Shown piece after piece: positions 3,516 through 27,500 of a DNA stretch of 64,000 bases; position 1 is the stretch's first letter, and every line of letters starts with the position of its first letter. Both the position numbers and the translations under genes were made by a program. The notes below the pieces were generated by a model that saw nothing but the letters and a program-made list of their open reading frames with translations, was not told where the DNA came from and ran no database searches. Source of the DNA: Actinernus sp. WN-2022 (Eukaryota > Cnidaria > Anthozoa > Actiniaria > Actinernidae); the NCBI GenBank assembly GCA_030867875.1, contig JAOWCC010001501.1, positions 28,292,792-28,356,791 on the forward strand. The letters run 5' to 3'.

Positions 3516-3582
3516 CTAGGGCAATTGATCCAGAGCCTGTGCAATGTCCTTTTTCAGGTCCTCTACGTGTTCAAGGCCAATG
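3516..3582 (-). CDS. PLP-enzyme exon 9 (last coding exon)
   Basis: After a pyrimidine-rich tract ending TTGTTGTAG, the exon supplies the third base of a Ser codon begun in exon 8, then reads [20 protein letters not shown], Pro and a TAG stop at 3518-3516. This matches the family's C-terminal RLSxGxExxxDLxxDxxxAL helix. It is 67 bp, in the phase required by exon 8. Confidence 0.88.
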
Positions 3583-6500
3583 CTACAACAAAAAGAAGAC
3601 ATTCAGGTTAGTATTAATGAATTCAATGTTATATGGAAGAGTTAAATACCGAGAACCGAGGCTTTTAGCCAGATACATTTCAAGATTGACAAGGTTTTCA
3701 CACAAAAAAAAACTTTCCTATGAGAAAACAATTCTTTGACCTTCAGAAAAAGTAAACAATACCCTTGTAAATTAAACAAAGCACTGATTCATACAAAAGA
3801 ATAATTATTTTGGCGTTAAGGTACGTCACTAACATGCGCAGTTGGAGTATTGTGAAAAAAATCACGTCCCATAATGATAAGACGGCTCGCGTTCTTAAAG
3901 AGGGAGTGAGTGAAAGTATCGTAATTGAGTTCTCATATCGGGTCATTGAACTGACTGTCAGCTTGAGAGCACAACTTGCATTGGTCATTATAAATGCAAG
4001 GGCTTTATCTGTATATTGACCCGGGTCAATATACAGATAAAGCCCTTGCATTTATAATGACCATAAAGCCCTATGAATAACAAAGAAAACCGAGCCGATC
4101 ATGAAATAATTAACAATATAGACTGCGAGCTCGGCAGACAGTTGGCGAGTAGCGCAGCCCCGAATCAACAATCAAAATCGATAGAAACCAAGAGCGGGTA
4201 GTCTAATTGTTTTAGTATAACCACCAAACCACCGTTCTATCAACTCGGCGATCAACAAACTGTGAGTAAAACTCGGAATTGTTTTTCTTCTATAAGTGAT
4301 TTTTGTCTACAGCGCGCGGAGGGTCGACTATTTAACAATTAGACCCGCAGCCCGAATGGGCTACGAGAAGGCGAGAGGTCTCATTGTTTTAGTATAAACT
4401 ACCTAGCCGGACAGTAGAAAATAATAGAAAGAAACAAATTGAAGTCGAATATTTTTTATTATTTCGTGAAAATGCGTTGGTTTATACTAACAATCGATAG
4501 ACGGCGGCAGGCTAGCCAATCAAATGGTGAGTTTGTCAATAGACGGCGGCTAGCTAGCCAATTAAATGGTGAGTTTGCCAATAGACGGCGGCTGGCTAGC
4601 CAATCAAATGGCGAGTTTGTCAATAGACGGCGGCTGGCTAGCCAATCAAATGGCGAGTTTGCCAATAGTCGGCGGCTGGGTTATGCTAAAAGTAATTACC
4701 TACTTGTAGGGTAATGGCTTGAGTTTCATGACAGACGAGACGGCGTTCGTAAAGGAGTGTGTTGGGGGAGGAGGAGGGTGTGTGTGGGGGGTCCTAGTGG
4801 AGTCAATGGAGAACGACCCGGAGGGGTTCAGCTCCCGCAATAGGCTCTGCGAACTTCAACATTTTGGAGTTAAAAAGTAGCTCCCTGATTGAGATTTAAA
4901 TATTTTTTTAGATTGTTTTCAGATCTTTGGAGGGGAAAAAATCGCTTATGGCATGGAAACATGAGTAATACAGTACCGCTCGAAACTTGTATTCTGATTG
5001 CACCATTATGCTGGAGTGATATTGTACTGCACGTTCTAAAGGTGTTTTCGGTATAGCGGTACAGGCCGGCTCAGAAACATGCCCTAATATTCGTCTGCGG
5101 ATAATTATCTGTTCCGAGAAGGGAATAGTTTACGAGAAGCGAACAGTTTACGAAAAGTGAAAAGTTTACAAGAAGCAAACAGTTCCATAGAGGTTTGACC
5201 TTGTTGCCGGACCCCAGCAAAGATTTAACGTTTTCTTGGATTACTTTACGGATAATTACTATTTTATATTATAACTTAATGCTTTGATGGGCTTAACATC
5301 CTCAGCATTTCTACTGCTTCTTAGGGTAATCACGTGATCAGTGACGTCATAGCTAAGAGAAACACATAATAAAGGATGGGGCATGAAGTTTTATACATCG
5401 GAGAAAATTGATCATGAAAATAAGAATACTTTAATTAGTCAAATATAATCATGGTTAGAGATAGTTTTTATTGATTATGAAGATATGAAGGGGGAAATTT
5501 GGTCACGTGACCTGGAAATAAGTAATCAAAATGTACTGGATATACTAACTTGTTTACTTGATTACCCCATTTTAGAAGGCCTTTCCCCTAAAATATTCGT
5601 GTTAACAGGTCACTTGATCACCCAAAATTCAAAAACACTAGTTAAGCTTCTTTATCACATTAAGTTCTATTGATATACTCCAAGTTTCGTTATATTCACA
5701 TATAACGTTCTAGCTAATAATCTTGAAAAATGTATATTTTTCTATTTTCGTTCAATGACCCATGCCTTAACATACTTGAGATCGAAGCCGAAGGCCACAG
5801 CACAAATATATGGGGCTTATTTTCAAAATTCACACGGTAAGTTACTGTCCTTATCATCCTTCGGCAAACCCTGCTTACTTTACATGGGGATTATATAAAG
5901 ACTATGGCCGCGTTCTTTTGGGACTATTCAGGAATAAGAATAGGCGGAATAGAAGGCAATCGTAATTCTTTTGGGATCGATTACGTTTTAGGAATGAACA
6001 GAATAGCATTCTGTTAATTGCGCTTCCGATAGCATAATAAACAGAATACGGCTTACTCGGAAGAGGTAAAATGGTGTTTTTTTTTGGAACGTTTGGCAGG
6101 AAATCTCTGGCGCGCGCGTCCAGCGAAGTTGTTGGCTCCCAGGTCACCTTAAGACCCGTTTACACAGGCGATTTTTTGTGGAATTTTTGTCGCGATTTTC
6201 ACTGCAATTTTGCTCGCCAGCGAAGTTGCACTTTCAAATCGCGCATGTAAACTAGCGGCGATTTTGATGTATTTTTTGTCGCCACCAAATCGCACTGGTT
6301 TCGAGCATGTTCAAAACTTGATGCAAATTTGCGGCGACTAATGTTGCAGTGGGACGCGACAAAAAGTGCATCAAAAATCGCCTGTGTAAACGGGCAAGTC
6401 CCTTCTATTCCTCATGTTTATTAGAATGGTTATTGGCTAAACATGGTTCCAGATGGCCAACGATGGCTAGACATGGTACGCATATCTAGCCATGTTGCTA

Positions 6501-9500
6501 GCCATCGTTAGCAATCTGGAACCATGTTTAGCCATTCTAAAAAAGATGCGGAATAGAAGGGACTTGCTAGCAGTCACCTCCGTCAAGAACATTCCGTTTT
6601 CGTTAATCTGTTCGTGTTCTTTTTAGCTCCCTCCGCTGCGCTGGCCTTTTACCTGGTAAATACCAAAACAAACATGGCGAAACAAGTTTGAGTTCTCCAA
6701 GCGTTGAGCTCTCCATTCACTGAATTTCGTTAAAAATGCATTTGATCCCAAATGTTTTATCATTAAAATCGATTCTCCATCAAGTAAATAGTTGAACTTT
6801 TAATATATTTTTTTAAGTTGAGTGTGGCGTCTATGAGTTAGAGGTTTCTATTTCCAATATGCTAATTATGTGACGTCACAGGAGGCCAACAAAAGGTCAT
6901 TTCTTTCTCCTTGTGAATTAAACTATTTCTGATTTATACAAAATATTTGGTAAAATCACTGATATAAGTACCAAATATGACATGAACGTTTAGAAAAATA
7001 TGTATATTTCTGCCAGCACATTGTTGTATGATAAATGAGTCCTCATATGTCGTCACATACTTAGCATATCGGAAATAGAAACCTCTATAACTCATAGACG
7101 CCGCACTCAAATTAAAAAATATTTTACAATATTTTGCAATTCAACTATTTACTTGATGGAGAATCGATTTTAATGATTATAAAATTGGGCTTATACGCAC
7201 TTTAATCTTTTAGAAGAACTCCAGTTTGTGTTCTCATCTCCTTTCGACGAATTTGTGGAACGAGATGGCGTCCGTATTTTCCGGCAGGAAAATTGCATGC
7301 GTTCTGACTGGTATAAATTGTTCTTAATTATTCTTAATTGTTCTTAATTGTTCTAGTACCTGAAGAAGGCTGGTTTGGCCAGCCGCAATATTGTAATATT
7401 AAATATAAAATCAGTCCTACGTTGTGTCAGCTTTGCTGTAGTCCTTGGACTTCGTATTCTTAATTGTGCCAACTAATCTAAAGTTTAAAACTTTGAATTC
7501 CTTTTATTTTTACCTGAGTCTAAGAAAGGAACCAAAATCTCCTTTTAGCAAATGATTGCATTCTGGGTTGGCTTCATTTACGGTGTTCATACCACTGCTG
7601 AGTAAGTCTACCAAGCTGTCCACTCCACCGAATGACAACGCCATCTTGATTATCTTGAGATTCTATTCATTGGACAGAAACAAATGAAGTCAACAAGACC
7701 TCGTGCACACGTCGAACGAAGGCGTTTTCAAATGTTCCCATTCTAGCTTTATTGAATAGGTATATTTAGGGTGCGTTTCTTTGGGAATCCAAGATAGGGT
7801 TATAATCCCGGATCACACGGATTTTTAATTGCCAAACGAAACAAAGAATCCGAAAATGGATTTTTTTTGGGCATGAGAGTTCGTTCGAAAAGACAAATCA
7901 GCCACTGCTCGTCAATTCTGGAGGTTAAATGTGCTATTTTCAAGACGTAGACCGCTTTTCACATGAACTTTTTTCGAATCCTTTCCCAAAGAAACGCTCG
8001 AATTACGAATCCTAAGAATCCGGTTTTGGATGATTAATCCGTCAAATCCATTTTGAGTATGGATTCGACGGATTCAAAATCCGTTTTCAGATTCTAGTAA
8101 AGAAACGAAAACTCCATTTTTGGATTCAAGAATCCGGATTCGGATTCTCTCAAAGAAAGGCACGTCTGCTTGCCTAACCAGGGGCCGTCTATCGATCGTG
8201 CGCGAGCGCTATAGATAAAAATCATTTAGAAAAATACTTTTATTCGAGAAATTTTCACTGTTTCCTAGATCGCTAAGTTGATATAACAGAGGTTTGGTTA
8301 TACTAACACTGCCAATTAAACTTGCTCACTCTTGGTTTAAATATGTATAGTTCACTCGGGGCTGCGCCCCTTATCCACTATCTGTGGTTCAAGTTTACCG
8401 CAAAATTTGGGCTCGCGCTCATTTGTCCGCCACTTGGCACTATCAGGCGTTATAATATACCCTACAAATTATATAGATTCTGATTGGTCAACAACGAGTG
8501 CATCAAAAGATTACTGAGTGCACAGTTGCATGCTCTCAGCAAATGTTTGCTCAGTATATTATAAACAAAAGCTTGCATGAACTGCTCGTGCTTTATACTT
8601 GATTTATAGGCACTGAGTGATATTTTGAAAATTCTCAAGTTACACTCAAATATCACTCAGTGCCTATAAGTCCCGTATAGCACTTACGTTCATGCGATTT
8701 CCTCTACTTATAATTCACCATAAAAGTTTGGCGCGCGCTCGTTGGCCAAAAGCACTCACGTGATGTGATTGGGATAGTTCGCGGATGCAAACTATATATC
8801 AGGCGTTATCGGTTCACCACAACATTTTGGCGCGCTCTCATTGTTTCGGCCACTTGGCATTATCAGGCTAATACACAAATTAATAGTGTGTCCGTCGAGG
8901 AACTATCGGCTGATATATAGTTGCCCGCGGAAATTTGATGTTATTAAAACAAATATAAGCCCGAGAACACAGTTCGAGGGCTTATATGTTAGTTTTATGA
9001 ACATCAAATTTCCAAGGGAAACTATCAGCCGATAGTTCCGAGACATACACACTCTATTTGTTGTTATTGTTCATCACAAAATTGTCTTCCGCTCTCAGCG
9101 GGCACCATTATACAAATAGACTTTGTCCGTCGCCTGATAGTTTGCCTCCGCGGACGATAACTATCACATCACGTGATCGCTTGTGGCCAATGAGCACGCG
9201 CGAAAATTTCGTGGTGAACTATAAAAGTCGCCCGTGGGCACTATCAAAATATTTGTGTTGAGCACTAAAGACTATATAGTGTTTCTGTCTCGGTACCATC
9301 GGCTGATAGTTTTAATAATATCAAATTTCCAAGGGAAGCTATCATATAAGTCAAATTTCCGCGGGCAACTATAATCCGATAGTTCTTCGTCTGACATACT
9401 ACTCTATTTGTATAATAGTGGCCCGTGGGCACTACCAAAAACTTTGTGTGGCTGTCTCTATTTGTGTAATAGAAATTTCGAGCTCACAGCTAGTCTGATT

Positions 9501-12500
9501 ACTAAATATTCACATAAATAAATTATATACTGTCTAAAATGTCATATAAAACTAAACAATGTTCAATAATACAATCTTTTATTCAAATGTCTAGAACATT
9601 AGCGTCTTTATAAAGGTTGCTATAACAACGTTCAAAATAACGTAGACAAAGCATTGATCACTAACCTGCATAAACCTGTTAGCATTTTCCGCTGTACCTG
9701 TTATCCCAAACAGTACAATACCACTAAATCCTTTCATCTGCTTTTTAGCAATTCCGTGGTTAGGAAAGGACGGTAAGCCAGGATAGAGAACAGAAGTAAC
9801 CTGTTGAATAGGATAGAGAACAGAGCTGACCCGTTGAACAGGATAGAGAACACATTACCAGAAATCTAACCATACATCGTCAACAATCACGGACATTGCG
9901 CCCGCGGTAAATAAGCGGGTTCTACCATAAATGACTCTAAAATATCCTCAGATTTTACAAAGAATGTATGAAACGACTTCAGAATTTTGCAAATACGAGC
10001 GAACATAATAAATATACTTACCTTGCCGCACCAGCAGTCCAGCATACAAGCCAAAATTATCTGATTGTTGCAAAAATTCAGATCAATTGCTTGTGTTATG
10101 CTTTTCCTTTCCACTATGCTCGGCGTACTACAAAGAAAGTTGCCACTTAATGCTTCTTTTAGACGGGCAAAAATACGCTAAACCCAAAGTTGACAACTTC
10201 ATATCTCTATACCAATATCGATTACTCAATTTGCCGGACTGGGTACTAATGCTAGACATGGTTCTCGTTCGTAATCCAAAATTAAAGATTTAGATTAGAT
10301 TAGATTATACACTCAGACCATTAAGATTTCCTTTCGAACTAAAATCCAACACGATGCTTCACCATTTGTAGTTGTCTCCGATTCGTGAATAGATGACAAT
10401 CTCAGGGTGATTTTACCCAGAAAGGTTCACATGCCTATGTGGGCTACTACTTCATGTAGCTGTGACTTAGCCTAAATTCACCCATTAGTGATTAGCTCTA
10501 AAACACCCAACATTAGTGACTACCTCTAAACACCCTAAATTAGTGAGCACCCATTGTTGACGGTTAGGGTGTTTTTTTAAATGTATGGTTAGGGTTTTAT
10601 AATGGTTTGGGACAGTTTGTGCAGCTACATGAAGTACTTGCCAATTTTGGTATCAAACCAAGCATGCAGTTAATTATGGGATAGCTGTAAAAACGGTAGA
10701 TGTGGTCAGCAGTTAAAGGAACAGTGCCACGGTAATGCGCACGCGTAACACGTGATTATTAATAATGAGAAAGACACGTCACGTCACGTCAAAACTCAAC
10801 TGATCTGGAACGACCTTTGGAATTTTCGCTAGCACGAAATCTAGAGTTAATAGTTTTGTAATTTGCATCAGTTGAGAAGTTCAGGATTTAGAATCGTATA
10901 AACTTCCCACTGAACCATGAGATAGTGCTTCGAAGATCTACATTCATCGTATTCGGGATAATAGTTTAGGAATCCAATCGGCAATGCCGACTCATAAACA
11001 AACAATAACTTCTGTGTGAATTATAATATTTCATTCTTCTGAAGTTTCGCGAAGTGAAAGCGAAACTACGGGGAAACTAACGTTCTGAATTCATAGCTTT
11101 GGGGCTTTGCGATTTCAGGATGAGTTGTTGTACAATTGTAAGAGCGCTTCCACTACAAAATCGGGGAAGAAAAGAGTTCGATTTTGCTAAATAGCGAGGC
11201 CTTGAACTGTACCGAACAAAGGCCGTGTTGACACTTCAATAAATACACGCGAATCATAGTACATTCAGCGACTTACAAGCAGAGTAAATGTCTCCCCCTA
11301 CATTCTCGACGAACCGTCCAAGGGAACTGAATTCAGAGTCAAAAATTCTCGCAAAAATTACGGAGACGAACGAAATACATGTACCATCTTAAATCCTAGA
11401 ATATAAAACTAAATTACTATTCTAAATAGGTATAAGGTCAAATGAAACTTAGGCAAAGCCGATGGAAGAGGATTTCTTTCACGTATCAAATCTCTCCCCA
11501 TCTTTTGATTTCTGGACAACCCAACCAAAATTCAAACATTCGCACATGCGCACTAAGGATGGCACTGTTCCTTTAAACCTGAGCATTTCACTTCCGGTGA
11601 AAATTTCCGCGCGAAAACCAAAATAACCGTATGATTTACATCTCACCCAGGAGCGTAAAATCACTATTTTCCCAAATGTCCGACGTTCTTTATATTTACA
11701 TCTTTGAAAGATTTTAAGTATCACATGAGTATCGACAGTGTCAAAAGTATCCGGTATGTGAAAAATAAGTGTATTCACAGGGAAAACCGCTGACGTACCG
11801 CAGACTCGTCATGACCGGAATAGTTGGCGATGCCGGAAAATTCGGAATTATAAAAGTAAAACAAAAAATGATTTGAAGATAAAGGTTACTGAACCTCCCC
11901 TATCATATATTAGCAAACAACACATTTCTGAAGTCCACACTGCTCAAGGCATTTAAATAATAACGGTAATCAACTCTTTCTCCCCTTCTTTCTACTCGGT
12001 CCGCCATCAGTTGGAAATACCAAAGTGAGCATGCGCACTAGTAACTGGCGAAAGCCGCAGTACATTTATACGCAGGCTCAGAAATTTAATTTACCTAGAT
12101 TTCTGGTAATGGAGCTGATCGACCTGTTGAACAGGATAGAGAACAGAGCTGATCTGTTGAACAGGATAGAGAACAGAGCTAACCTGTTGAACAGGGTAAA
12201 GAACAAAGCTGATCCTTCTGATGAACAGTATAGAGAACAGAGCTGACCTGTTGAACAGGAAAAGGACAGAGCTAACCTGTTGAACAGGATAGAGAACAGA
12301 ACTAACCTGTTGAACAGGATAGAGAACAGAGCTGACCTGTTGAACAGGATAAAGAACAGAGCTGACCTCTTGAACAGGATAGAGAACACAGGATAGAGAA
12401 CAGAGCTAACCTGTTGAACAGGATAGAGAACAGAGCTGATCCTTCTGATGAACAGTATAGAGAACATAGCTGACCTGTTGAACAGAAAAAGGACAGAGCT

Positions 12501-15500
12501 AACCTGTTGAACAGGATAGAGAACAGAACTAACCTGTTGAACAGGATAGAGAACAGAGCTGACCTGTTGAACAGGATAAAGAACAGAGCTGACCTGTTGA
12601 ACAGGATAGAGAACAGAGCTAACCCGCTGTTGAACAGGATAGAGAACAGAGCTGACCTATTGAACAGGATAAAGAACAGAGCTGCAGACCTGTTGAATAG
12701 GATAGAGAACATAGTTGACCTGTTGAACAACGGTAGCGATTCGTAACATGACAAGTTTTTATTATTTCATAACACATACTGGACGAGGAATGATTTTTTA
12801 GGTGCAACAATTAAACAGTAGCAAAACCTCTTTACATTCTGAAGAGTAGACTTACTCCAAGTACCCATGCATGAAATGAAAACTACGAATGACAAAACTT
12901 TATATTTAGCTCCGTTACCGTATGCATTCGCACGTGTACAAGTATAGAATTGAAATCAGATAACAGAAAACTCAGCCAAGCATACCTTATGGTGGTTCTC
13001 CAAGAACGTTGCTATTTCCATGCCATTCAAGTTGTGTTTCTCCATTCGAAGAGGGAGTGTTTTGAGGCCGCGGAGTAACAGAAATCCGTCGAATGGAGAC
13101 TGCATAAAAATATTATTAAGACCAAGTAAATGATCGTTTCATATAATAAGACATTTTCTGTGCACATAATTTCTGGTGGGACTTATGATTAACGTATTTG
13201 TTTTTGATCTTACCTTGGGGAGAATTGCCAGAAATTACAAGATCCGTATCTCATTGCTATTTTTCTTGAAGAAATTTTAAATGTGCTGCGCGTACATCCG
13301 TCACATTATGCGGGAAGTTGTTAGCACGAAAGCAGCGTTAAGCATGGTTTTCACTAACGATATGAAGTCTGGTTTTCACAGCGAAATTAAGCCTGGTTTT
13401 CACTAGCGATACTAAGCCTGGTTTTTACAAGCGATATAGCGATACTTCGTGTTGATAAACATTACATTTGTTATGCTAATATACCAACCATGATTTCAAA
13501 AGGCCGCTTTCTGTCAGGAACCAATCTCTGGTTGGCACAATAATGACAATGGATTACGTGGCAGTAAGTATCGCTATTATAAGCCTGGTTTTTAAATAGC
13601 CTTTTCTTGTTTTACGTATTTTACCGGCTCGTGTCGTTGTGCGTTGTGGAGATTTCTATCTGAAAAACACGCGGAAAACCAGTCTTAAGCATAAGCATAA
13701 GTAACATACGCAGACGCAGTGCCGTATTTATCGTTAGCGGTACCTACTCACAGGTGTGAGATAAGAATAAGCGCCGCTAATACGACCAATGCATTACTGT
13801 GTGTATGTCGTTAGCTAATTAAAACCAGGCTTAAAAGTCGCTCGACGCACAGCAGAGCCTTTTGGGTGCTTACGCACCCACCCAGTATCGTTTACTCTTC
13901 TTTTTAACCGATTAGGCGAAATAAGCGTGAATAAAATCTGACATGAGCGTGCAACTGATGGGTAAATCGTCAATGACTATTAACCAATCAGTGCGCGTTT
14001 TTTCGTGGTTATGTTATAATACAAAAGGTTGGAGTTCTGTAAATAGCGATTAGCATGCGCATGCGTAATGATCTGTTGACTTGACCTTTAAATCGAGCAA
14101 TATTAGTTTCTTGTGAATAACACAAGCATTTGATAAAGAAGATGGCAAGGGATCATTGTAGGACTCTCAAGCTCGAGTTATACGGGAAACAATTTCTTGC
14201 AACTTGTCTCGCAACAATGTTGCGTTGCGAGTTGAAGCGTAGCCTGCTTTCAGGCGGTAGATGGTGTTTTTTTCGCACAGCAAACGGATCATCGAAGCGG
14301 CGCGCCGCCACACTGGCCGAGCGTGATTGAGACTTGGGATCGAATGACAAATGGAGGGGGGAGGGGTGGGGGAAAAGAAGCAGAAAGGAAAGACCGCCTG
14401 CCCGAAAACCCCTGGTTTCTGAGTACAAAAGTTAGATCCCGTCCACCAGCGGACGGGTTATATGATTGGCTGAAACGGTGTCAATCAAAGCTTGAAACGG
14501 TAAGTAAGTAAGTAACTTTATTTAAGTGTCAAATGTATTTAGCTTTGTAACTAATTGGGTACACTAGTCCTACGATTTTACGTTCTTATCCGAGAAGACG
14601 TGAAGGTATAACCATTTGCAGTTGTTTCGCAAAGTTATTTTAACACCCTGAGTGTTGGTCCGGCCGGGGTTTGAACCCGCGACCTCCCGCTCAACAGACC
14701 GGAGCTTGACCACTGAGCTAACCAGGAGGTGGTGTCAAACACGGCAAGTGTTGAAAGCAAGAACTGAAAGGAATAAGTGTAGCCCACGCACAACACTTAT
14801 TCTAGTTACGCCGCTTCGCGTACTGAGCTTACAGTTGATAAAATATGGCCAGTAATACAAAAAGTTTTGTCTTTTTTGAAGACTAAGGTGAAGTACCCTG
14901 GTTCCAGAGGTTTTCTAGTCAAGAGAGAACAGCTACGGAGAAAGAGCCGCGAAGGCGGCGATCGGCGAACTGCGAGAGGTTTGGTGTCGAGTTCTCTTTT
15001 CGCAAGTTCGTAAACCGTAAATATCATACTCTTTCCAAAGCGCCAGAAGATCTTTACTTAGAAGTAGGCTCTGTATATAGCTTCCTCCTGTATCCGTTTT
15101 CAAAGTTATCTCCTTCGCCTTTACCCTGGTTCCAGAGGTTTCTAGAGAGAACACAGCTGCTCGCTTCTTTCTCCGCGGCTGGGTAAAGGTACTTTGAAAT
15201 CGGAGCAGGAGGAAGCTATACAGAGCCTAGGCTTGTTGGTAAAGATGTTCTGGTTGTGCTTTGGAAAGAGTATGATATTTACGGTAAAGAGAACTCGACA
15301 ACGGGCCATGATTTAATTCGCCACTGAAAAGTATTATTGTCGACCAAATTGCAATCCGGCTATTGACTTCACGGCCGTTGAACTAGGAAATAATAAGAAA
15401 TCCGCCTCAATACATTTATGCAACGGTCGTCCATTTCTTTCGGCAAACATTCACTAAGATGGACTTCGACTTCTCAGAGAAAGAGCTTCTCGTTTCTACT

Positions 15501-18500
15501 CTCTCGTTTGGGTTGACGATCACAACATTTACCTGTGTCCTTTGCACTCGTAGTTTGTTTGTCTACGAGTTCTTCAAAAAACATTGTCTCCATCGGAGTT
15601 TTCTTTGAAGTTTAGAGATTTTTTCGATCCTGTTTTTTTTTATGCGAGCTTAATTCTTTTAAGGATGGAAGCAGCCGCTTGTATCGCACCTCTTCTGGTT
15701 CGACAGACTGTGCTGCTGCGGTGCTGGACAGCTCTCTATCTATATCTTGTAATGTTGGTATGTATTTCGGAGGATTTGCAAACTCTTTGAGAGACTGATG
15801 GGGCGAACGTAACAAGCTAAAACCGAACTGTCTACATATATATTCTAAAGTGGTACTGTCGCAGTCCTTTCCATGGAAAACTTTGAACGAAAATAGCTGG
15901 TTTTATTGAAATGTCCGTATCTGAGAACCAATTGACAATTTTGCAAACATTTTGCATTGCATTTGACATCGAGCGAAGTTTGTTTTGAATTGCCCTACAT
16001 CATTATGACGTCACGGCTTGTTTATGAGGGGGACAAAATCGACATGAACAATAGAATTTTGGACTAAATCTGCTCTGCTGAGGAAAATTTAACTTCGAAT
16101 TGTATGGTTTCCAGATATCAGCTGTATCAATGTTTATCCCACAATATTTACCGTATTTGGTGGCTGTTACCGCTATTCTACGTTCTACAAAATGCATTTG
16201 ATAGTGATTTCCTTTGTGTTGTTGCTGTTCTGTCCGATCCCCCTCCCACGACGGTGATCCTTAGCGTTTAAACAATAGATTGTTTTGATTTGACGTCATA
16301 ATGATATAGGGCAATTACACGCTTCATTCCAATCAAACCAAATCAAAATTGGCAGGCTGTCACACGTCGACTCCTATTGGTCAGTTAAGAATGGATTACA
16401 AGTTAACGGAAGTCATGTGCGTGGTGGGCGGATATTCAGAAACCAGGGGTTTTCGGGCAGGCGGTCTTTCCTTTCTGCTTCTCCCCTTCCCCCCTCCATT
16501 TGTCATTCGATCCTAGGTCTCAATCACGCTCGGCCAACATTGCGGCCACTTCGATGTTCCGTTTGCTGCGCGAAAAAAAACACCATCTACCGCCTGAAAG
16601 CAGGCTAGTTGAAGAGCGATGTTGCAGGTATTACCACCCACTCGAGCAACTTGCCACGCAACAAATTTCCATATTGCAAGTTGGAACAACATGTTGCAGA
16701 AAGTAGAAGTGACTTCTACTTTTGGCAACAAATTTTGATTTTGTTGCTCGTATTACCACTGGCGCTGCAACTTGTTGCGCAACAAATCCGCTATCTTTGT
16801 TGACTTCATCATTTGCCAAACCTGTGCCAAAAATGTGCTGCCAAACGTAGAAGTCACTTCTACTTTCTGCAACATGTTGCTGCAACTTGCAACATGGAAA
16901 TTTGTTGCGTGACAAGTTGCTCGAGTGGGTGGTAATACGTGCAACATCGCGCTTCAACTCGCAACGCAACATTGTTGTGAGACAAGTTGCAAGAAATTGT
17001 TACCCGTATTACTTCACCTTTAAGACGATGAATGAAAAAATTCTTATTTGTAAAGAATTCCATGGCATGCAAAATGCTAAGTGTAAAAGGACGATGTGTC
17101 TTATTTGAGAGTGAATAATATTGTTAATTAAGTAACGTATGGAGAGGTCTAGTCGTGAAGTGATAAAGGGTCAAAAGAAGTATTTCAACCGCAACAAAAA
17201 CGCATAACGATAAGCTTATAGAAAACTACGGGTGCGTTCGATTGACAGTATTCCGGAATAAGAATACACAGAATAATCATTACGAATCGTTTATATCGGG
17301 ATTTTGTTAACCACTAGAATATTAAATGTATCCTGAATATCATGCATATTTTGTCAGCAAGTGTTTGTAGCTAAAAGTGAAAAATGTACCTGAACCCAGA
17401 CCTGAACCAGTGATTCCTAGAGATTATTCCATCTATTCTTATTTTGGAATACGGTCAATCGAACCCGCCTTACGTACCAAACATCCCCCGAGAAACTTCT
17501 GGTAATCGTGTATTTGATGTAGCAGCTTTCTTGAAGAGGACGTCACCGAGCCAGCAATTATATCATAGTGACCTCCCATATATTTAGAGCTTAAAATACA
17601 TCAAAATTTGACAAAGATCAGATACGTACTTTTGAAAACAATAGACTGATTAGCGATATGTTTTATACTGAACAAGAGCCCATCTGGGCTTCCACTCGGG
17701 CCACATGAGATTGAAGATGAAATACACTTTCATTTGAAATCCTCTTAGTAATAACCAAAGGGAAGAATTATTAACTGAATTTAGAAGTTTTTAGGTGTGG
17801 CCGGTAGCGCAGTGACTTTCATTCTCTGCTCCCCAAGTATATATGTAATTTTTTTTTTTTTTTTTTCTCGTATGTAAATTAAAGAAGTTGACATTTTAAT
17901 TTAAACACTACTTATTCAAGTAACACACATTAGTCTTCTGTTCTGTTATACTGCAGGTTCCGATTGTCTCAAATGTATGTTTATATTTGTACCATATTAT
18001 AAGTTGTATCCTGTCCATCCTGTGATGGAGCTAGCTATGTCAATTTTGTGTGCCTCAATGTAATTTTATCTGCTGTTCTTGCTATAGCGATACTACATGT
18101 GAACACAACGTCATTTATATATTTACATTTATAATATAGATACGATAGTACGCGCGCTCTGATTGGCTAAGAAGCCATGTTTTATCAGAGTATATAACAT
18201 GGTTAGCCGTGTTATATAGTTTTCAACTGGCGGTTTCCTTTCATCGCGCGCGTAAATCTATATTATAAAACAGATAAAGAAGCCTTAAATCCATGTTTTA
18301 TACTATCATAAAACACTCTGGTCATTTGAGAACACTCTAGAAATGTTGAAAGCACGCGCCTTCGGCATGTGCTTTAACATTTCTCTCATGTTCTCAAATG
18401 CCCATCGTGTTTTATGATAGTATAAAACATGGCTAAGGCTTCTTTATTTGTTAAATATAATGTGGTTTGGCAAAAAAAACGCGTGTTTGTATGACTTGTA

Positions 18501-21500
18501 TGGACTGTATGGGAACTAGCGATTTGGGACTCACAAAATACATCTAAAGTCTCAATTCTGCTTCCAAGTCCAAACATGGTTATCAAGCTAAATGAAGGAT
18601 TCTTCCGTTTTCCCCATATTAACAGACATGTAACAGTATCTTAATCCAGTAGACTCTCTCTAGCTAGGTTATTCTGTCGTAAAACATGCCTTAGCTGTGT
18701 AGTTGACCTGACCCAAACTGTCAACAGTTTTACCATTGACAGATTGCCTAATGTTATGCCAGAGAATAGATTTCTGACAATGACTCATTTATCTATATCT
18801 CCTTGTCTCGTAATGACAACAAGAGGCCAAGTATAACCTCAACAACAAGTCTTTAAAATAACACATGCAATGTTCATTTTAACTTCCTCCCAGTGATTTA
18901 GCATTCAGTTTTGAACTGTATCAGTAGCTTTGTATATTTACTGGCAGCTACCACAGCAGTGTTATGCATGTATCAGTGGACATTATTACTACATAAAACA
19001 TAATCGTGACTACTGGATTTAGCCTGTATATTTATAATATATAAAATGTATATAGTGGCACCAAGGGAACTAGTACTACTACTACTAACAGAAGAGAAAG
19101 TCAATGTATTTAGCATGGTATTGCTATAATTGGGGACAAATATATTTACTCTCGATAATTATCTATACAACTATATAATTCCACTACACTTGAGGGTGGT
19201 CACTACCAGAGATTTGGTTGCATTCTCAGTGTTGCATGGCCTACAATTTAACATTGTGATCCAAGAAGACACAAAGCTTTTAGAACCATTTGCAGATGTC
19301 AGAGCATTAAGGCATGCAGTACCAGTTCTCCCAGTTATTTTAAGGTAGCTTTATACCTGGATTTGAACTCTGACTACCTCCTGCACAACAGACTGACACT
19401 TAACCACTGAGCTTACTGGTTCTGTGATGGGCCAAATTTTGTTCAGATAAAATTAATCGAATTCTATTAAAAATACATCTGAGACATTGAATAAATGTAG
19501 TCCATGGAGTTTTAGCATAGTTTTTGTCATAAATAAATGTTATTATTATAGCCAGAGAATAATACTGGTTCACTACTCATGCTCTTGCGATAAGTGATAA
19601 TGGATATATAATGAACTACAACTGCCAAATGCTGCACATTTGCCCGGGGGGAGGGGTGTTGTTAATATATTGTAACCAGGACTGATCAGTATTATTTTCA
19701 TTCTGGATGAGATAGGACGTATTTCTCAGCAAGTAGCTTTTATGCATTTTGTAAAAGTATAAATCTATTATGCTAGAGAAAATAAGACTGAGTTTGTACC
19801 CTTTCTCTTCATATTTATTTATTTACTAGAAGTAATCATAGATTATCAAAGTGCATTCAACATATTTTTGAAAGAGAAAGGACTGTGGTAACAGTCTGAA
19901 AAGCTGAAAATTGCTGCAATGAAGTGGACGGTGTACGTATATAATCCTGATCAAAAGTGCTTGTTTTTTAACTAATGTGAAAATGTTGATGTCTTGACTT
20001 ATATGTTAATATACAAGGGGATGCATCTGGGTATAAAACTGTAATTATCTTTGTGTAACATTAAATCAATGGATGCGATGCTTATGGGGCTATATGTATG
20101 CATGTGTGTTTTATATGGTTATGGCATTGATTTGAGAATTAGTAGCACATTTTGCTGTGTGGTATACAGTGTAAAGCAATAATTGAAGTTAGTGTAGAAC
20201 ACAAATCAACTCAGGCTTTACATACATACATGAACTTTATTTGAGTGTCAATAGTATTTAGCTGTAAAGCTAATTGGGGACACTATTATTACAGGATATA
20301 TAAAGGGATTAATATAAAGTACGTATAAATAAATATTACTATTCAGATGTGTATAAACTGAATTCCAGTTCCTAGAACATAAACTATATATGGATGTGTA
20401 TAACGTACAGCACATGCAGTTCCTTCGATTTGAACAGATCGTTCACATTACGTTTCCCGGGTATTTTTCAAGTGAGAACAAGGTTGGTTGCAGAATATTG
20501 AGCGCCATTGTTGTTCCAGAATAATTTATGGTCGCTTTGATCAGCCTTGTTTCAGGTCCGTTAGAAATTCAGTGTAGATTAATTGAACACAGCAATGAAG
20601 TCAGTACTTTAAATTTCCCTCACCTTGTACTGTGTTGATATTCCAGTTCCTTGGCATATCAAAGTGTCGGTATAGATTAACTCTCTGTCTGATTGTAGTG
20701 TTAATTTGAATCCGTTAATTTGTATAACGAAGATGTATACACAGTGTCGCAACTCGACACACAAGATACGCCGATTACGGGTATCTAGAAAACTCAGACC
20801 TTGTTTCTCTTCAGCCAGGTCATCTTACTGTTTGTAGTTTCGGTATCTGTATGTACAGCGAAAAGCAGAATCCAGTACAGCGAGCAAGCCAACAGAATTC
20901 ACTCGGTTGTTTACAAATTATGGTGAGTTGATTTGACTGTTCAACTTCGCTGGTGTCGACGTCGTCACCGCGCCGACAAAACAGACCATGTTTGACTTAA
21001 ACCACCACGATGCACACGTGTAGTATTTAAAAAGCTTCTTCACAACTCACACTGAAATATTCATATCCATGTATTTCTCTTCAGCCTTCAGGTATGATTT
21101 ATAGCATCTTGACCATTTGCAGTTTTGGTATCGGCAAACCGAACAGCACAATTCAAAATTATGCAGCGAGCAAGCCAAGCATATTTTTCGATCGCACATT
21201 CACTCGGGTTCAGCATAAATAAATAACAAGTATCCTGAGCCTGTTGGAAGGCTTTCGCACGAGTGAAGTTAAATAAAACATTAAAGTGCTTACACTCCAA
21301 ATTAGAGAGAAAGTTCCTCGCGGGTCCGCCGCCATCTTGATTTACTGTATTAAATTATGTAAATAAATTAACCTGGCTTGTTGTGTGACCAGTACAGTGC
21401 AATCTGATTGGTGTGAATTTGACCTTTAACGCATGCGCAGAACACTTGCTACACGAAATAAAAAAAAATTACGACTTGCATTTTTAGACTCGGTGCTGCC

Positions 21501-24500
21501 ACAGGCAGCCCGAGTAACAAGAGGCTGTACCAGCCTTTACTCGGGCCATATGGAATTCCAACAAGGAATAGTTGGTACAACTTTGCAGGTTGAATTAAAA
21601 AGAGTATTTTACACTTGCAGTTTTTCAGCCTTTGAGAGAATAATAAATTATTTTAGATTATTTTTACAAGAGTTACATATATAAATTATTTTGAAGAAGA
21701 ATTGTGATTCTTTGTCTCCAGAGAAGCCATATAATAAGAATATTATATTAGTCATGTAAAAATAATCCTATTTTAGAGTGCCTGGGATGATAACTGCCAT
21801 GGAAAGCGGAAAGCAAATTGCAGCCATGTTTGTAACGGTAGCTACATGTGTTTGAGACAATATACATGTGGCAACACAAGACCAGTGATAATATTGTGAA
21901 CACGAATGGTTAATTCCGTCCTGCTCTGCTGTTATGGGACTCTTTACCAAACAAATTTCATTTCACATGGTTCAAGGCATGGTTTTAAGGGAAGAATACA
22001 AGAAGCCAAGTAAAACTTCAACAACAAATCTCTTTAAAATAACACATGCAATGTTCCTTTGAACTTCCTTATCAAATCCCCTGGTATGGGGCACCTCTGA
22101 TGAAAGCTGCTGATACATGCTGATTATTTACCCATCCATTTACAACAACAACAAAACATTTTAAGGCAGCAGTCATGATTATGCTTTATGTAGTATATGT
22201 AATCTACTAGATTTAGCCTGTATATTAATATAGAAAATGTATATAGTGGCACCAAGGGAACTAGTACTACTACTACTAACAGAGGAGAGTGTCAATGTAT
22301 TTAGCATGGTATATTGCTATAATTGGGGACAAACACATTTACTCTATATGTATACAACGATATCCACTACACTTGAGGGTAGTCACTACCAGAGCGGATT
22401 TGGTTGCATTCTCAGTGTCGGCCTACGAATTAACATTCTGATCCAAGAAGACACGAAGGTCTAACCAGTTCTTCCAGTTATTTTAAGGTCCTACATGGAT
22501 TTGAAAACTACCTCCTGCACAACAGACTGACACTTAACCACTGAGCTTACTGGAATGCAGTTTAAAGTGCAAATAAGCCCTGGCCAGTTATGATTTTTTT
22601 TGACAGCTTAAATTTTGAAATAAAAATATTTTCATTATGTTTTTAGCGACTGAACTTCCAAATGTAGATTAATTTCCGCGCACGTTCGGGGACTGGGACG
22701 AGAACAAAACGTGACGTCATCAACAGAACTAGTCTCTTCCCGAGCATAAAGCGTTGGCTTAGTTGCAAAATAATTGTCGAATAGATAACTAAGAAAGATG
22801 ATAATATCGCGCTAAACGTTTCGGAGAGCTTTATTCGGCAAGCCTTTAATGCAATGGCGCATCGAGCGTGTTCTGTTGATGACGTCAAAACTAGACTCAG
22901 TGATTTTCGTCCACAGGCAACCCAAGACACGTTTTTGGGCAACTTTGAACGGCCAATACACCATAACAAATCAATCAAATCAACTTTTTATTCCGGAATC
23001 CTTTGTCTATGGCCTCTACTATCTTCGTAAAAAATATAATTAGCCAGGGCTTATATGCACTTTAAGCAAACTGGAGGCTACCATCTTTCTGTTAATTGCG
23101 CGGTCACAACACGAAAAAGAGGCCGGTTGGTCCTCTGGAATGTTGAAGTTGAAATATTAGCAGGAGGTGTGAAACGTGTTAAACATGATTGTTTAGTTGA
23201 AAAATGTTGCTAATCAGTCCTCATTTATCCTTTATTTTTCTTTATAGTACAACCAGCTAGGCGCATAGCAAATTAACGGCATTGTTTCACTGAACATTCA
23301 TTCAGTAGAATGAAGAATAACCAATACGACGTAGAATTATACGGATTTAATGTAGCACAATATTTCGACTAGCCATACTAGTCTTCATCAGGTGCTAAGG
23401 AACTTTTACAATGTGACTTGACAATATATAATGGTAAAACGGAAATGACGTAAAAAACATAATATGATAACGAAAGATAACTAACGGTGTGACTGATTAG
23501 TAGGTCTCGTCGCGTTTGTTAAGGCCATTGGGTTCAAGAGTGTTAGCACGTGTTATGAGATAAGCTTCTTTAGCTTTGCGAATAGCATCACGAGAAGAGA
23601 AAATATGTTCTAAAGGAATTAAAAGGATATTAGATGCAGAGTGGTCAGGGTTAGATAGAAAATGTTCAGATGCAGTGGTGGGTTTGGATTTACTGGAAGG
23701 TTTGTCAACTGTCCTACGATGTTCGTTGAAGCGGTCTTTAAGTCTACGTTTCAGTGCATTTCACAATCTCCCTGGGCGCTTCAATTTCAACATTCCAGAG
23801 GACCTACCGGCCTCGCTGACATGCTAGTTACCAGGACTTATGCATAGGGTCTATTGCAATGAAGTTATAATTCTATTTTCTTTCGCTACGCTCAGCCAAA
23901 TAGAAAGTATTTGTATTTTCTACATGTGAATAATGATAACAACGTTTGGAGGGAGCCGCACAGCTGACAGCATCGTTTATTACAAGTTATTGCAATTGTA
24001 TACGTACTCAGAGACAGTTACAGTTCCTGTCACAGTTACTTTTAGCTCGTAAGAAACTTTTCAAAACATAACTGCATTCCCTGAGGACAGCTGAGGTCTG
24101 TTTATTTGTTTGTCAACTCATTTGTCTTCCCTGTAGGGTAGGGAGAGCGTTTGGTCTCGTGCCCAGGACTCGCAGTAACCGCGCTGGTCGAACCTTAACT
24201 CAAGACAAATCCGCGAAGCCGTTGTGAACTCGAAAACTTCGTCCAAAACAATCGCTTCTTGTGATATTCGACTCATATTTTTCGCTACGAAGGTAGTTTG
24301 CTCATTGGTTTATCTTTGTGTGGTGTTGAAATTGTGTTTGAGTTTTACTTAGTTTCCGATATTGACAATTTCGTTTTCTGTTTTGCCACCAGACTGGCTT
24401 GAAGTTGCCGACCTTGTTATCCGTTATAGTTTGAATTTGAATTGAGCAGTCTTAAAAGTAGGGGAGAGGGGAGGGAGAGTAAAAAAATGAGAAATTCACA

Positions 24501-27500
24501 AAAAGTACGTAAAACATGTTTTATTCTTGTTTTCACTTCACAAACAATATGTACACACGTTTTATTATAGTTTTCACTTCATTATTGTGGTTTGCCTATG
24601 ATGTAACAAAGAGAAAAATATATAAATCTGAGACATGTAACTTTGAAATTTAGAGTAAATTATTAGTTCTCAAATAAATAATAGACTATCATAGTAGTCC
24701 AATTGATGTTCTCGTATTCCAATCAGAATTAAACATGCGATTTCCACTCGGTTTTGGGATTATTAGAGTCATCTGTCTTCACACCAAATAATTAGTTGCA
24801 GTTGTAGATCTGCCCGAATGTTTAGAAATATTCCTGGATCCATATTCCTAACCGGAGGAACTGATAAATTGGGCCAATTTCTGGAGCCCATTTTCTAGTC
24901 TATTAGAAGCTATTTATACTTTAAGAGGAAATAATAAATATCAACACTGCAACCTGGTATTAGAAGTTTGTGTTTTAATCACAGGCTTCCCAGACTCTAC
25001 GTATATTTCCCGCTTATTAGTCTGTTGGGTTACCTGTGGTTTATCGATTAGTTTCATAACGATCTCAGAAGAGTTTAAATAATTGCTTCGTGTGAATTCT
25101 CTTTTCCGATTCCTACGAAATGAATCTTCAATAATAAAAGATTGATACTTAATGAAGTTGTGTGAGTGGTTTTTTGGCGATTTGGGGCCTTCTAAAGCAA
25201 TTTATTAGGATTCGAAATTTTGACCGTTGGCCGAGGCTCTAAGAAAGTTAACAAGGTAGGCAAGTCGACCTCGCCAAAGCACACACTTACCTCAAAGATC
25301 ACCCAAAAATCGGCACTTTTCTTCCTCGCTCGCTATTCAGCTTTCGGCACAGGAGGGAATAGTTATCAAGCAACATCTGACCAGAGATTTAGGAAAATCC
25401 ATCAAATTTATCATCGCCAAACCGCCTCCTCGAGACCCCAAAAGCGCGACCTTGCAATGATCTGTAAGAACCAGAATGACCAAAGCGGTCCAAAATTTTC
25501 CCGACCCTACCCTCAAGCGTGAAATTATACTTCCGCTCGAGGAACGAAAACAAATATATCGCCAATCAGAGAGACCATTACTTGGCCTTTTAACGAAACT
25601 GGCGGTTACAGACTAATTTTGAATTTGGAACTCGCCAATCAGAGGACCAAGACAGTTGGCTGGGGTCTTCACCGAGTGTTATGACAGTTCCACGTGAGAA
25701 ATTTTCGCGAGTTCCAAATTCAAAATTAGTCTGTAACCGCCAGTTTCGTTAAAAGGCCAAGTAATGGTCTCTCTGATTGGCGATATATTTGTTTTCGTTC
25801 CTCGAGCGGAAGTATAATTTCACGCTTGAGGGTAGGGTCGGGAAAATTTTGGACCGCTTTGGTCATTCTGGTTCTTACAGATCATTGCAAGGTCGCGCTT
25901 TTTGGGTCTCGAGGAGGCGGTTTGGCGATGATAAATTTGATGGATTTTCCTAAATCTCTGGTCAGATGTTGCTTGATAACTATTCCCTCCTGTGCCGAAA
26001 GCTGAATAGCGAGCGAGGAAGAAAAGTGCCGATTTTTGGGTGATCTTTGAGGTAAGTGTGTGCTTTGGCGAGGTCGACTTGCCTACCTTGTTAACTTTCT
26101 TAGAGCCTCGGCCAACGGTCAAAATTTCGAATCCTAATAAATTGCTTTAGAAGGCCCCAAATCGCCAAAAAACCACTCACACAACTTCATTAAGTATCAA
26201 TCTTTTATTATTGAAGATTCATTTCGTAGGAATCGGAAAAGAGAATTCACACGAAGCAATTATTTAAACTCTTCTGAGATCGTTATGAAACTAATCGATA
26301 AACCACAGGTAACCCAACAGACTAATAAGCGGGAAATATACGTAGAGTCTGGGAAGCCTGTGTTTTAATACTTAAAATTGCAATTTTTTGGACCCAGTCG
26401 GCCAGTCGCCATCTCTCCTTTCGTAAACGTGAGAATTTTCCGTGCAAACGGCCCGTAAAACTCCTGTCGGCCCTAGAAAAACTGAACATCTTGGTATTTC
26501 AGTCGAAGAAGCGTTTGGTTTCAGCCAAAATGGCCCAAAACTAGGTGATTTGCCGTAACAAGGCATAAGCCAGCTTTGCATCTTCCTTAGTAGCCGCGAT
26601 CTTGGATTTTTCAGAGAGAAGACCTGTCCGCGTGTTTGTTCCGTGCGGAATCGAATCTGATTGGTTGATCCTATTACGTGTTGAGCCAATTCGAAACACA
26701 AAAAAAATTAAAAATATAAAAATAAATAAAAAAGACTTGCGAAACTTGACTCGGGCGGCCAAAGGCCTGGCCCGAGTAATGAAACCTGGCAGAAAATCAA
26801 TTAAAATTATGTAAGGGTTATACACCTGGAGCGACGGGGTATACCAACTAGCTTCCTGCCGATTACTGTTAAAATCACTCATTCGAAGCATCCGGGGAAA
26901 ATTCATGGACTCGATTGAGTTTTAATCCGTTGAAATTATGAAATTCGTTACCCAAAGCGTATGTGTACTTCTTTTATGAAACTAATAAACATTCGAGAGC
27001 TAAAAGTAGCCTTTAATTTATGCGGCCGTTGATAAAACATTGGCGCAAAGCACCATGGGCTCGGACACAGGGTCTTTTAAAGTGCAATGGCCTCAGTTAC
27101 TAGTTTTAAGAAGAACCTCAAAACCTACTTGAGATAGGAAACCTATTTACTAAACCTATTTTCTAGGCAATCGTTTTTAACTTTTAGCATTACCAATTTG
27201 TAATCAAGTTTATTAGTCATTATTAATCATTATATGTTTAATTTTACTATTAGTCATTATATCATTACTATTCTAGTATTAAGTATTCTACAATTATTAT
27301 TTTAGTTATATTCTACAATGTAAAGCGCTTTTGGGCATTTATGGAAAAGGCACTCTATAAATAAAACATTATTGTTATTTAGTCGCCGAGGGTTGCGCTC
27401 AAGGGTACCCTGGTTACAGTGACCGACGTAACCGAGTGGACCTGGGGTCGATCTTCGCGACTTTCGAGCCTCTGGTAACTAGGGTGGCTCAAGGGCGTTA

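What the first reader, a model, noticed from the sequence alone, without database searches (positions are those of the whole stretch)
9781..12731. Minisatellite that appears to be born from a splice acceptor and the first codons of exon 7
The 30-bp unit of the ~20-copy array (12113-12731) matches the exon 7 boundary almost exactly: TTCAACAG acceptor plus GTTA(C/G)(T/C)TCTGTTCTCTATCCTG. The exon's own boundary is the first unit of a short array (9781-9859). VTSVLYPG is conserved in the enzyme family, so the exon must be the source. The large array therefore places about 20 decoy acceptors, each with in-frame VSSVLYP codons, in the same intron upstream of the true exon. It could alter splicing or add 10-residue repeats to the protein.
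Basis: partly seen in the sequence, partly recalled or inferred. Interest (0 to 1): 0.85.

Follow-up and report, generated by a model that had tools for sequence, protein, structure and literature searches.

The report
Minisatellite copied from a splice boundary
In a coral- or anemone-like animal, a 30-letter stretch straddling the edge of an enzyme gene's seventh exon has been copied about 20 times into the neighbouring intron and later cut in two by a jumping gene, which adds one more example to a little-known class of repeats ('mirages') described from lancelets.

Summary
On the minus strand, an intact nine-exon cystathionine gamma-lyase/methionine gamma-lyase-like gene has a 30-bp array in intron 6 whose unit is the last 10 intron bases plus the first 20 bases of exon 7. 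The best array unit matches the exon copy at 28 of 30 bases, against at most 21 in 300 shuffles. Sixteen aligned relatives have no insertion at the junction and nearly all keep V-x-YPG, so the exon is the source.

First, the "two arrays" are one 22-unit array ending in exon 7, split by a 2,259-bp transposon with 16-bp inverted ends that recur 62 times in the genome. Second, this is a known kind: "mirage" minisatellites of lancelets (PMC3087553, PMC3902484), reported there not to disturb splicing.

Twenty of 20 units in the large piece keep AG and 16 keep AG|GT. The one repeat acceptor near the exon has lost its AG, and no frame from the 20 decoys reaches exon 7, so added peptide repeats would need extra donors. 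No RNA data were available. The boldest open reading: AG|GT decoys act as self-erasing recursive-splicing points.

The parts
9666..9800 (-). Exon 7 (45 codons) of the cystathionine gamma-lyase/methionine gamma-lyase-like gene; its first 20 bases are the exonic half of the repeat unit
   Evidence: Pfam PF01053 E 3.7e-9, profile 272-315; PDB CGL/CGS matches; alignment with relatives
9779..9852 (-). Exon-proximal piece of the array: unit 22 (true acceptor and exon start), unit 21 (acceptor AG changed, reads CGG) and the 3' part of unit 20
   Evidence: TRF; unit table
9853..12111 (.). TIR DNA transposon inserted in the array; ends CATTACCAGAAATCTA / TAGATTTCTGGTAATG; flanks rejoin to a perfect unit with no target-site duplication
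   Evidence: Inverted repeat I3; rejoined flanks; 62 genome copies of the terminal 16-mer, backwards control 0, nine inverted pairs within 4.1 kb including this one; eight other pairs inspected
10713..11576 (.). Second element nested in the first: TTAA-flanked, piggyBac-like repeat with 17-bp inverted ends, high copy number
   Evidence: Inverted repeat I2; genome matches at 90-98% identity; of 17 other copies inspected, 15 show TTAA at both ends and 2 at one end
12112..12729 (-). Distal piece of the array: units 1-19 and most of unit 20; 20 acceptor sites with AG, 16 with AG|GT; contains a 227-bp (7-unit) block duplication
   Evidence: TRF; unit comparison, units 5-10 versus 12-17; site table
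12986..13099 (-). Exon 6 (38 codons), donor AAG|GTATGC, which would splice to exon 7
   Evidence: Pfam 234-270
3516..55401 (-). Whole gene, 9 exons: 55401-55261, 49827-49666, 46981-46841, 34763-34588, 17589-17478, 13099-12986, 9800-9666, 7662-7514, 3582-3516
   Evidence: tblastn with relatives' proteins and reading of splice sites; all eight introns GT-AG and the joined exons read as 398 codons with one final stop

Best explanation
A 30-bp segment spanning the 3' splice boundary of exon 7 (TGTTCAACAG|GTTACTTCTGTTCTCTATCC) was tandemly duplicated, giving a minisatellite of the 'mirage' kind. Shown: unit and boundary are the same sequence, the rejoined array is 22 units long, and exon 7 itself is its last unit. 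Inferred: the copies spread into the intron by slippage or unequal exchange while selection held the exon copy to its protein sequence; a 2-base TG repeat at both array ends is compatible with the founding duplication. Shown by sequence: the exonic codons of each unit are pyrimidine-rich, so the exon 7 acceptor (placed by the protein-level junction, not by RNA) has a copy of its own coding sequence as its polypyrimidine tract. Shown by structure: a TIR transposon, itself carrying a piggyBac-like insert, landed in the array and left 19-20 units about 2.3 kb upstream. Inferred: splicing still joins exon 6 to exon 7, as in lancelet mirages, and the array is mostly tolerated.
For: Match 28/30 versus at most 21/30 in shuffles. 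Array and exon form one 22-unit series once the insert is set aside. In an alignment of 17 proteins (the window's and 16 relatives), no relative has an insertion at the junction and V-x-Y-P-G is at 90% or more, including two archaeal proteins named Kariarchaeaceae and Heimdallarchaeota (one coral gene model, P0006, instead lacks those residues). Exons 6 and 7 cover adjoining Pfam positions. Of nine exons with 60-base flanks compared to the window, only exon 7 matches a tandem array. Acceptor score 10.3 bits at exon 7 against 7.7 at the intron-side end of the array; 16 versus 12 pyrimidines of 20. Transposon ends: 62 genome places against 0 for the backwards control, nine inverted pairs 0.3-4.1 kb apart. 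Lancelet mirages have the same anatomy, are reported not to disturb splicing, and their cluster-boundary units escape homogenisation, as the exon copy does here (passages read).
Against: No orthologous DNA from a related species could be fetched, so the pre-duplication allele is inferred, not seen. No RNA data, so tolerance is an analogy from lancelets; human boundary repeats (PMC2812944, ABCA7) can change splicing. The exon copy differs from all 21 intronic units at one base (C, against G in 20 and A in unit 1; alignment), so the founder was either a slightly different allele or one base has changed since. The TG microhomology is only two bases. The intron-side flank of unit 1 is only presumed to be the original intron end.
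Confidence: 0.85

Rival explanations
1. The array changes splicing in a way that matters: decoy acceptors in the large piece are used, giving poison exons or extra 10-residue repeats, perhaps varying with array length (as with the human ABCA7 VNTR).
For: 20 of 20 large-piece units keep AG and 16 keep AG|GT. 15 of 20 acceptors score 9.2-11.6 on a rough matrix, against 10.3 for the true one. Donor-like CAG|GTTAGT in units 7 and 14 is the same 9-mer as exon 7's own donor. A TAG|GTAAAT donor-like site sits in the transposon end. ABCA7 VNTR length correlates with exon 19 skipping, and one of its units can be retained. Human tandem repeats at exon-intron boundaries are reported to form novel introns.
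Against: No frame from any of the 20 decoys reaches exon 7. The near decoy has lost its AG. Units are 30 nt, very short for exons. Lancelet mirages are reported not to give aberrant mRNA.
Confidence: 0.12
2. The repeat came first: an intronic satellite expanded into, or was converted onto, the start of exon 7.
For: The exon copy and the array are contiguous once the insert is set aside, so exchange in either direction is physically possible.
Against: The YPG motif at the exon start is conserved in the family from archaea to animals, and the array was found nowhere else in the genome (a search that skips very common words).
Confidence: 0.02
3. Two independent arrays, or an assembly artefact, rather than one array split by a transposon.
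For: The pieces lie 2.26 kb apart.
Against: Rejoined flanks restore an exact unit; the intervening segment has perfect 16-bp inverted ends that recur genome-wide, in part as pairs.
Confidence: 0.03

Closest known systems
'Mirage' minisatellites of lancelets (Adh3, globins BflGb6/BflGb9, TnC, PGBD5)
   Same: Tandem duplication of an intron/exon boundary ending at the authentic boundary; BflGb6 likewise duplicates the 3' end of an intron plus the 5' part of the next exon; many but not all units keep AG/GT (PMC3087553 and PMC3902484, passages read)
   Different: Host is an anthozoan-like animal, not a lancelet; 22 units of mostly 30 bp (BflGb6 units are 150-160 bp, 6 and 3 copies in its two haplotypes; Adh3 10-72 bp); interrupted by a transposon; splicing and length variation untested here
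Internal tandem repeats at exon-intron boundaries of human genes in segmental duplications
   Same: Minisatellites (30-bp units on average) located at exon-intron boundaries, some associated with novel introns (PMC2812944, passages read)
   Different: Not checked whether their unit is a copied splice boundary; they lie in recent primate paralogues, and transcript evidence exists
Human ABCA7 intron 18 VNTR
   Same: 25-bp intronic minisatellite next to an exon whose unit contains a splice signal; single-unit retention observed (PMC5954066, passages read)
   Different: Donor rather than acceptor side; the unit is not a multiple of three; functional data exist
[quoted passage not shown] fission yeast SPOG_01682 and SOCG_00815, vertebrate ATP2A1)
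   Same: Tandem copies of a short segment with a proto-splice site, some of it spliced out (PMC4974935 and PMC3629103, passages read)
   Different: Here an existing acceptor boundary was copied; the 5' end of intron 6 (GTATGCTTGG) does not resemble the unit, so the array did not create this intron
Recursive-splicing ratchet points (Drosophila)
   Same: Juxtaposed acceptor and donor, AG|GT (PMC8605326, passages read)
   Different: A tandem array rather than single conserved sites; intron of 3.2 kb, not a very long intron; no splicing evidence

Membership tests
Mirage minisatellite | Repeat unit spans an intron/exon boundary, with exonic and intronic parts both present | tested here: met
   Unit = 10 intron bases + 20 exon bases; 28/30 best match, shuffles at most 21
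Mirage minisatellite | Array is contiguous with the authentic boundary | tested here: met
   Exon 7 start is unit 22 of the rejoined array; in the present sequence only the 2.5-copy piece touches it
Mirage minisatellite | Many, not all, units keep AG/GT signals | tested here: met
   20 of 21 intronic units keep AG, 16 of 21 keep AG|GT
Mirage minisatellite | Copy number varies between alleles | not testable with these tools
   One assembly only; an internal 227-bp block duplication shows past turnover
Mirage minisatellite | Normal mRNA splicing is preserved | not testable with these tools
   No RNA data; protein-level junction is contiguous and the nine exons read as one intact frame
[quoted passage not shown]
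   Exon 6 end and intron 6 start show no match to the array (donor GTATGC)
Recursive splicing sites | Juxtaposed acceptor and donor of good strength | tested here: met
   Rough recalled matrix: with acceptor 9 or more and regenerated donor 6.5 or more, 12 of 13 minus-strand sites of the window lie in the array, 1 site on the plus strand; with acceptor 7 or more, 12 of 18, and 4 on the plus strand. But 7 of 20 large-piece units lack GT or would regenerate only a weak donor
Recursive splicing sites | Stepwise splicing intermediates in RNA | not testable with these tools
   No RNA data
Cys/Met metabolism PLP-dependent enzyme (PF01053) | Pfam domain over the assembled protein | tested here: met
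   E 7.4e-105 over residues 27-346 of the 350-residue join of exons 1-7 and part of exon 8

The most novel reading that the evidence does not exclude
Mirage arrays are tolerated because their decoys erase themselves. If exon 6 is spliced onto an array unit that reads AG|GTTAGT or AG|GTCAGC, the join regenerates a donor (AAG|GTTAGT scores 8.5 and AAG|GTCAGC 6.9; the normal exon 6 donor 8.6) and the transcript can be spliced onward to exon 7, leaving a normal mRNA. Exon 7 itself reads GTTACT, with C at donor position +5 (score 4.4), so the final join does not reopen. This is the one base at which the exon copy differs from all 21 intronic units. The array would be a tandem ladder of ratchet points, and mirages should be able to persist mainly at exons that begin with GT. 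Against it: 7 of the 20 large-piece decoys lack GT or regenerate only a weak donor, and three of those have good acceptor scores.
Probability: 0.1. Interest if true: 0.75.

Novelty: new member of a known kind. Interest (0 to 1): 0.4.

Why it matters
Under the name mirage, boundary-copied minisatellites turned up only for lancelets in the open-access library searched; related boundary repeats are known in humans. A case in an anthozoan-like genome suggests that they are a general outcome of tandem duplication at splice sites. It is an unusually readable example: the source, the direction of copying, a block duplication and a transposon interruption can all be seen. It offers a natural test of how the spliceosome ignores, or silently uses, a dozen or more near-perfect copies of a true acceptor.

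Tried and rejected
Rejected: the idea that the array made intron 6 (its 5' end has no match). Rejected: the idea that decoys add peptide repeats by simple read-through (stops in 20 of 20 frames). An apparent missing exon between exons 8 and 9 disappeared once relatives' proteins were aligned. No Rfam family reached its gathering score in the window. A 4.1-kb copy of the transposon (L063) was looked at for a transposase; I saw only reverse-transcriptase-like fragments by eye (recognised from memory, not searched).

Not achieved: a search for paralogous genes (PF01053) in the assembly did not complete, so paralogues without an array could not be compared. Outer-transposon pieces were not searched as DNA. 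Eukaryotic relatives' DNA is not in the collections, so the predicted ancestral allele was not seen. One search used rough exon edges, and exon 8's 3' edge fell just outside them; it was repeated with corrected edges (same result: outside exon 7, the only extra match is one 31-bp inverted match of exon 5's intron flank, not an array).
Full report
Gene and host. The window is minus-strand for a nine-exon gene (55401 to 3516) of the Cys/Met metabolism PLP-dependent enzyme family (PF01053, E 7.4e-105 for a 350-residue join of exons 1-7 and part of exon 8). All eight introns are GT-AG and the nine exons read as 398 codons and one final stop (exons placed). The best named relatives are anthozoans at 54-61% identity (Actinia, Oculina, Nematostella, Acropora, Desmophyllum, Actinostola, Exaiptasia, best 120 of 6814 hits listed, only the 7999 candidates sharing most words scored), so the host is most likely an anthozoan; this is an inference. 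The assembly has 1.39 Gb.

Observation. Exon 7 begins at 9800 with GTTACTTCTGTTCTCTATCCTGG after ATTCAACAG. A 30-base seed over this boundary matches 16 places in 12113-12731 at 22-28 of 30 (cut-off 22, ungapped) and one intronic place at 9840-9811 at 25. The best match outside the arrays is 19 on the minus strand and 18 on the plus strand. Three hundred dinucleotide shuffles of the array reach at most 21 and 300 shuffles of the seed at most 20, against 28 observed. A DNA search of the assembly found the array nowhere else (this search skips very common words).

Direction. In an alignment of 17 proteins, none of the 16 relatives has an insertion at the exon 6/7 junction, and V-x-Y-P-G is at 90% or more, including two archaeal proteins (named Kariarchaeaceae and Heimdallarchaeota; that these are Asgard archaea is recalled). 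The first residue of exon 7 is V or I in others, and one coral gene model, P0006, lacks these residues. Pfam places exon 6 at 234-270 and exon 7 at 272-315. The exon sequence is therefore ancestral and the array derived. Of nine exons with 60-base flanks compared to the window, only exon 7 matches a tandem array.

One array, split. Perfect 16-base inverted repeats CATTACCAGAAATCTA stand at 9853-9868 and 12096-12111. With that segment set aside, the flanks join into a complete unit and the array becomes 22 units of mostly 30 bp (29-44), exon 7 being the last. The same 16-mer occurs 62 times in the assembly (29 forward, 33 reverse; backwards control 0); 18 of these form nine inverted pairs 0.3-4.1 kb apart, the window's included. 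The eight other pairs show no consistent target-site duplication: one has a 2-base match (L068), six a single matching base, one (L065) none; the window copy has none. Some of these share flanks, so they are not eight independent insertions. Inside lies a second element, 10713-11576, bounded by TTAA and matched at 90-98% elsewhere (TTAA at both ends in 15 of 17 other copies inspected and at one end in 2). Units 5-10 and 12-17 are near-identical (0-3 differences each), parts of a 227-bp block duplicated later (TRF 97%).

Splice signals. With rough recalled matrices the exon 7 acceptor scores 10.3; its pyrimidine tract is the coding part of the preceding unit (16 of 20 pyrimidines). The intron-side end of the array, the likeliest remnant of the original tract, scores 7.7 with 12 of 20. 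All 20 large-piece units keep AG and 16 keep AG|GT; the unit at 9830, in frame with exon 7, has CGG instead. From none of the 20 decoys does the reading frame reach exon 7; stops fall between 12659 and 12080. Nine of 20 units read exactly VSSVLYP after their AG, 13 if close variants count. Units 7 and 14 contain CAG|GTTAGT, identical to exon 7's own donor. With strict thresholds 12 of 13 dual acceptor/donor sites on the minus strand of the window are in the array (plus strand 1); with a laxer acceptor threshold, 12 of 18 (plus strand 4, or 6 if the donor threshold is laxer too).

Interpretation. [quoted passage not shown] PMC3902484 passage; the original 2002 Adh paper is not held). The same paper notes that units could serve as cryptic sites and proposes them as a source of new introns. 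Human repeats at exon-intron boundaries (PMC2812944 passages) and the ABCA7 VNTR (PMC5954066 passages) show that such arrays can change splicing. I therefore file this as a new member of a known kind, probably tolerated, with a possible but unshown effect on splicing. That mirages under this name turned up only for lancelets rests on searches of an open-access library and is not a claim about all literature.

Boldest open reading. Because exon 7 starts with GT, each faithful boundary copy is an AG|GT ratchet point. Use of a decoy would rebuild a donor (AAG|GTTAGT 8.5, AAG|GTTAGC or GTCAGC 6.9; exon 6's own donor 8.6) and be spliced away, while exon 7 itself, with C at +5, rebuilds only a weak one (4.4). 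That base is the one at which the exon copy differs from all 21 intronic units. This would explain why mirages are harmless. Against it: 4 of the 20 large-piece units have no GT (4, 10, 17, 19) and 3 have a weak one (1, 2, 20); of these, units 2, 19 and 20 have good acceptor scores (10.3, 9.2, 10.3). The idea rests on sequence alone and on one diagnostic base.

Noticed in passing
9853-12111 and L063-L070: A TIR element family (ends CATTACCAGAAATCTA) without a consistent target-site duplication; the array gives an exact natural empty site for the window copy. No transposase was recognised in the one 4.1-kb copy looked at.
   Followed up: partly
10713-11576: High-copy piggyBac-like (TTAA, 17-bp inverted ends) repeat; the genome search listed 3383 first-look candidates and scored 40.
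   Followed up: partly
about 24941-26368: Long, near-perfect palindrome: matching open frames occur on opposite strands at 25196-25522 and 25820-26146, one residue apart.
   Followed up: no
7662-7514 (exon 8): Where relatives have an MTH motif, the window's enzyme reads [12 protein letters not shown]; this may affect catalysis or mark a divergent paralogue.
   Followed up: no
whole gene; P0008, P0010 versus P0012, P0014, P0016, P0019, P0028: The window's enzyme is about as similar to two Asgard archaeal homologues (49-50%) as to five non-anthozoan animal ones (45-48%).
   Followed up: no
35355-35888, 45142-45466, 50413-50746: Other tandem arrays in the gene's introns (periods 110, 32 and 57 bp) with no match to its exon boundaries.
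   Followed up: partly
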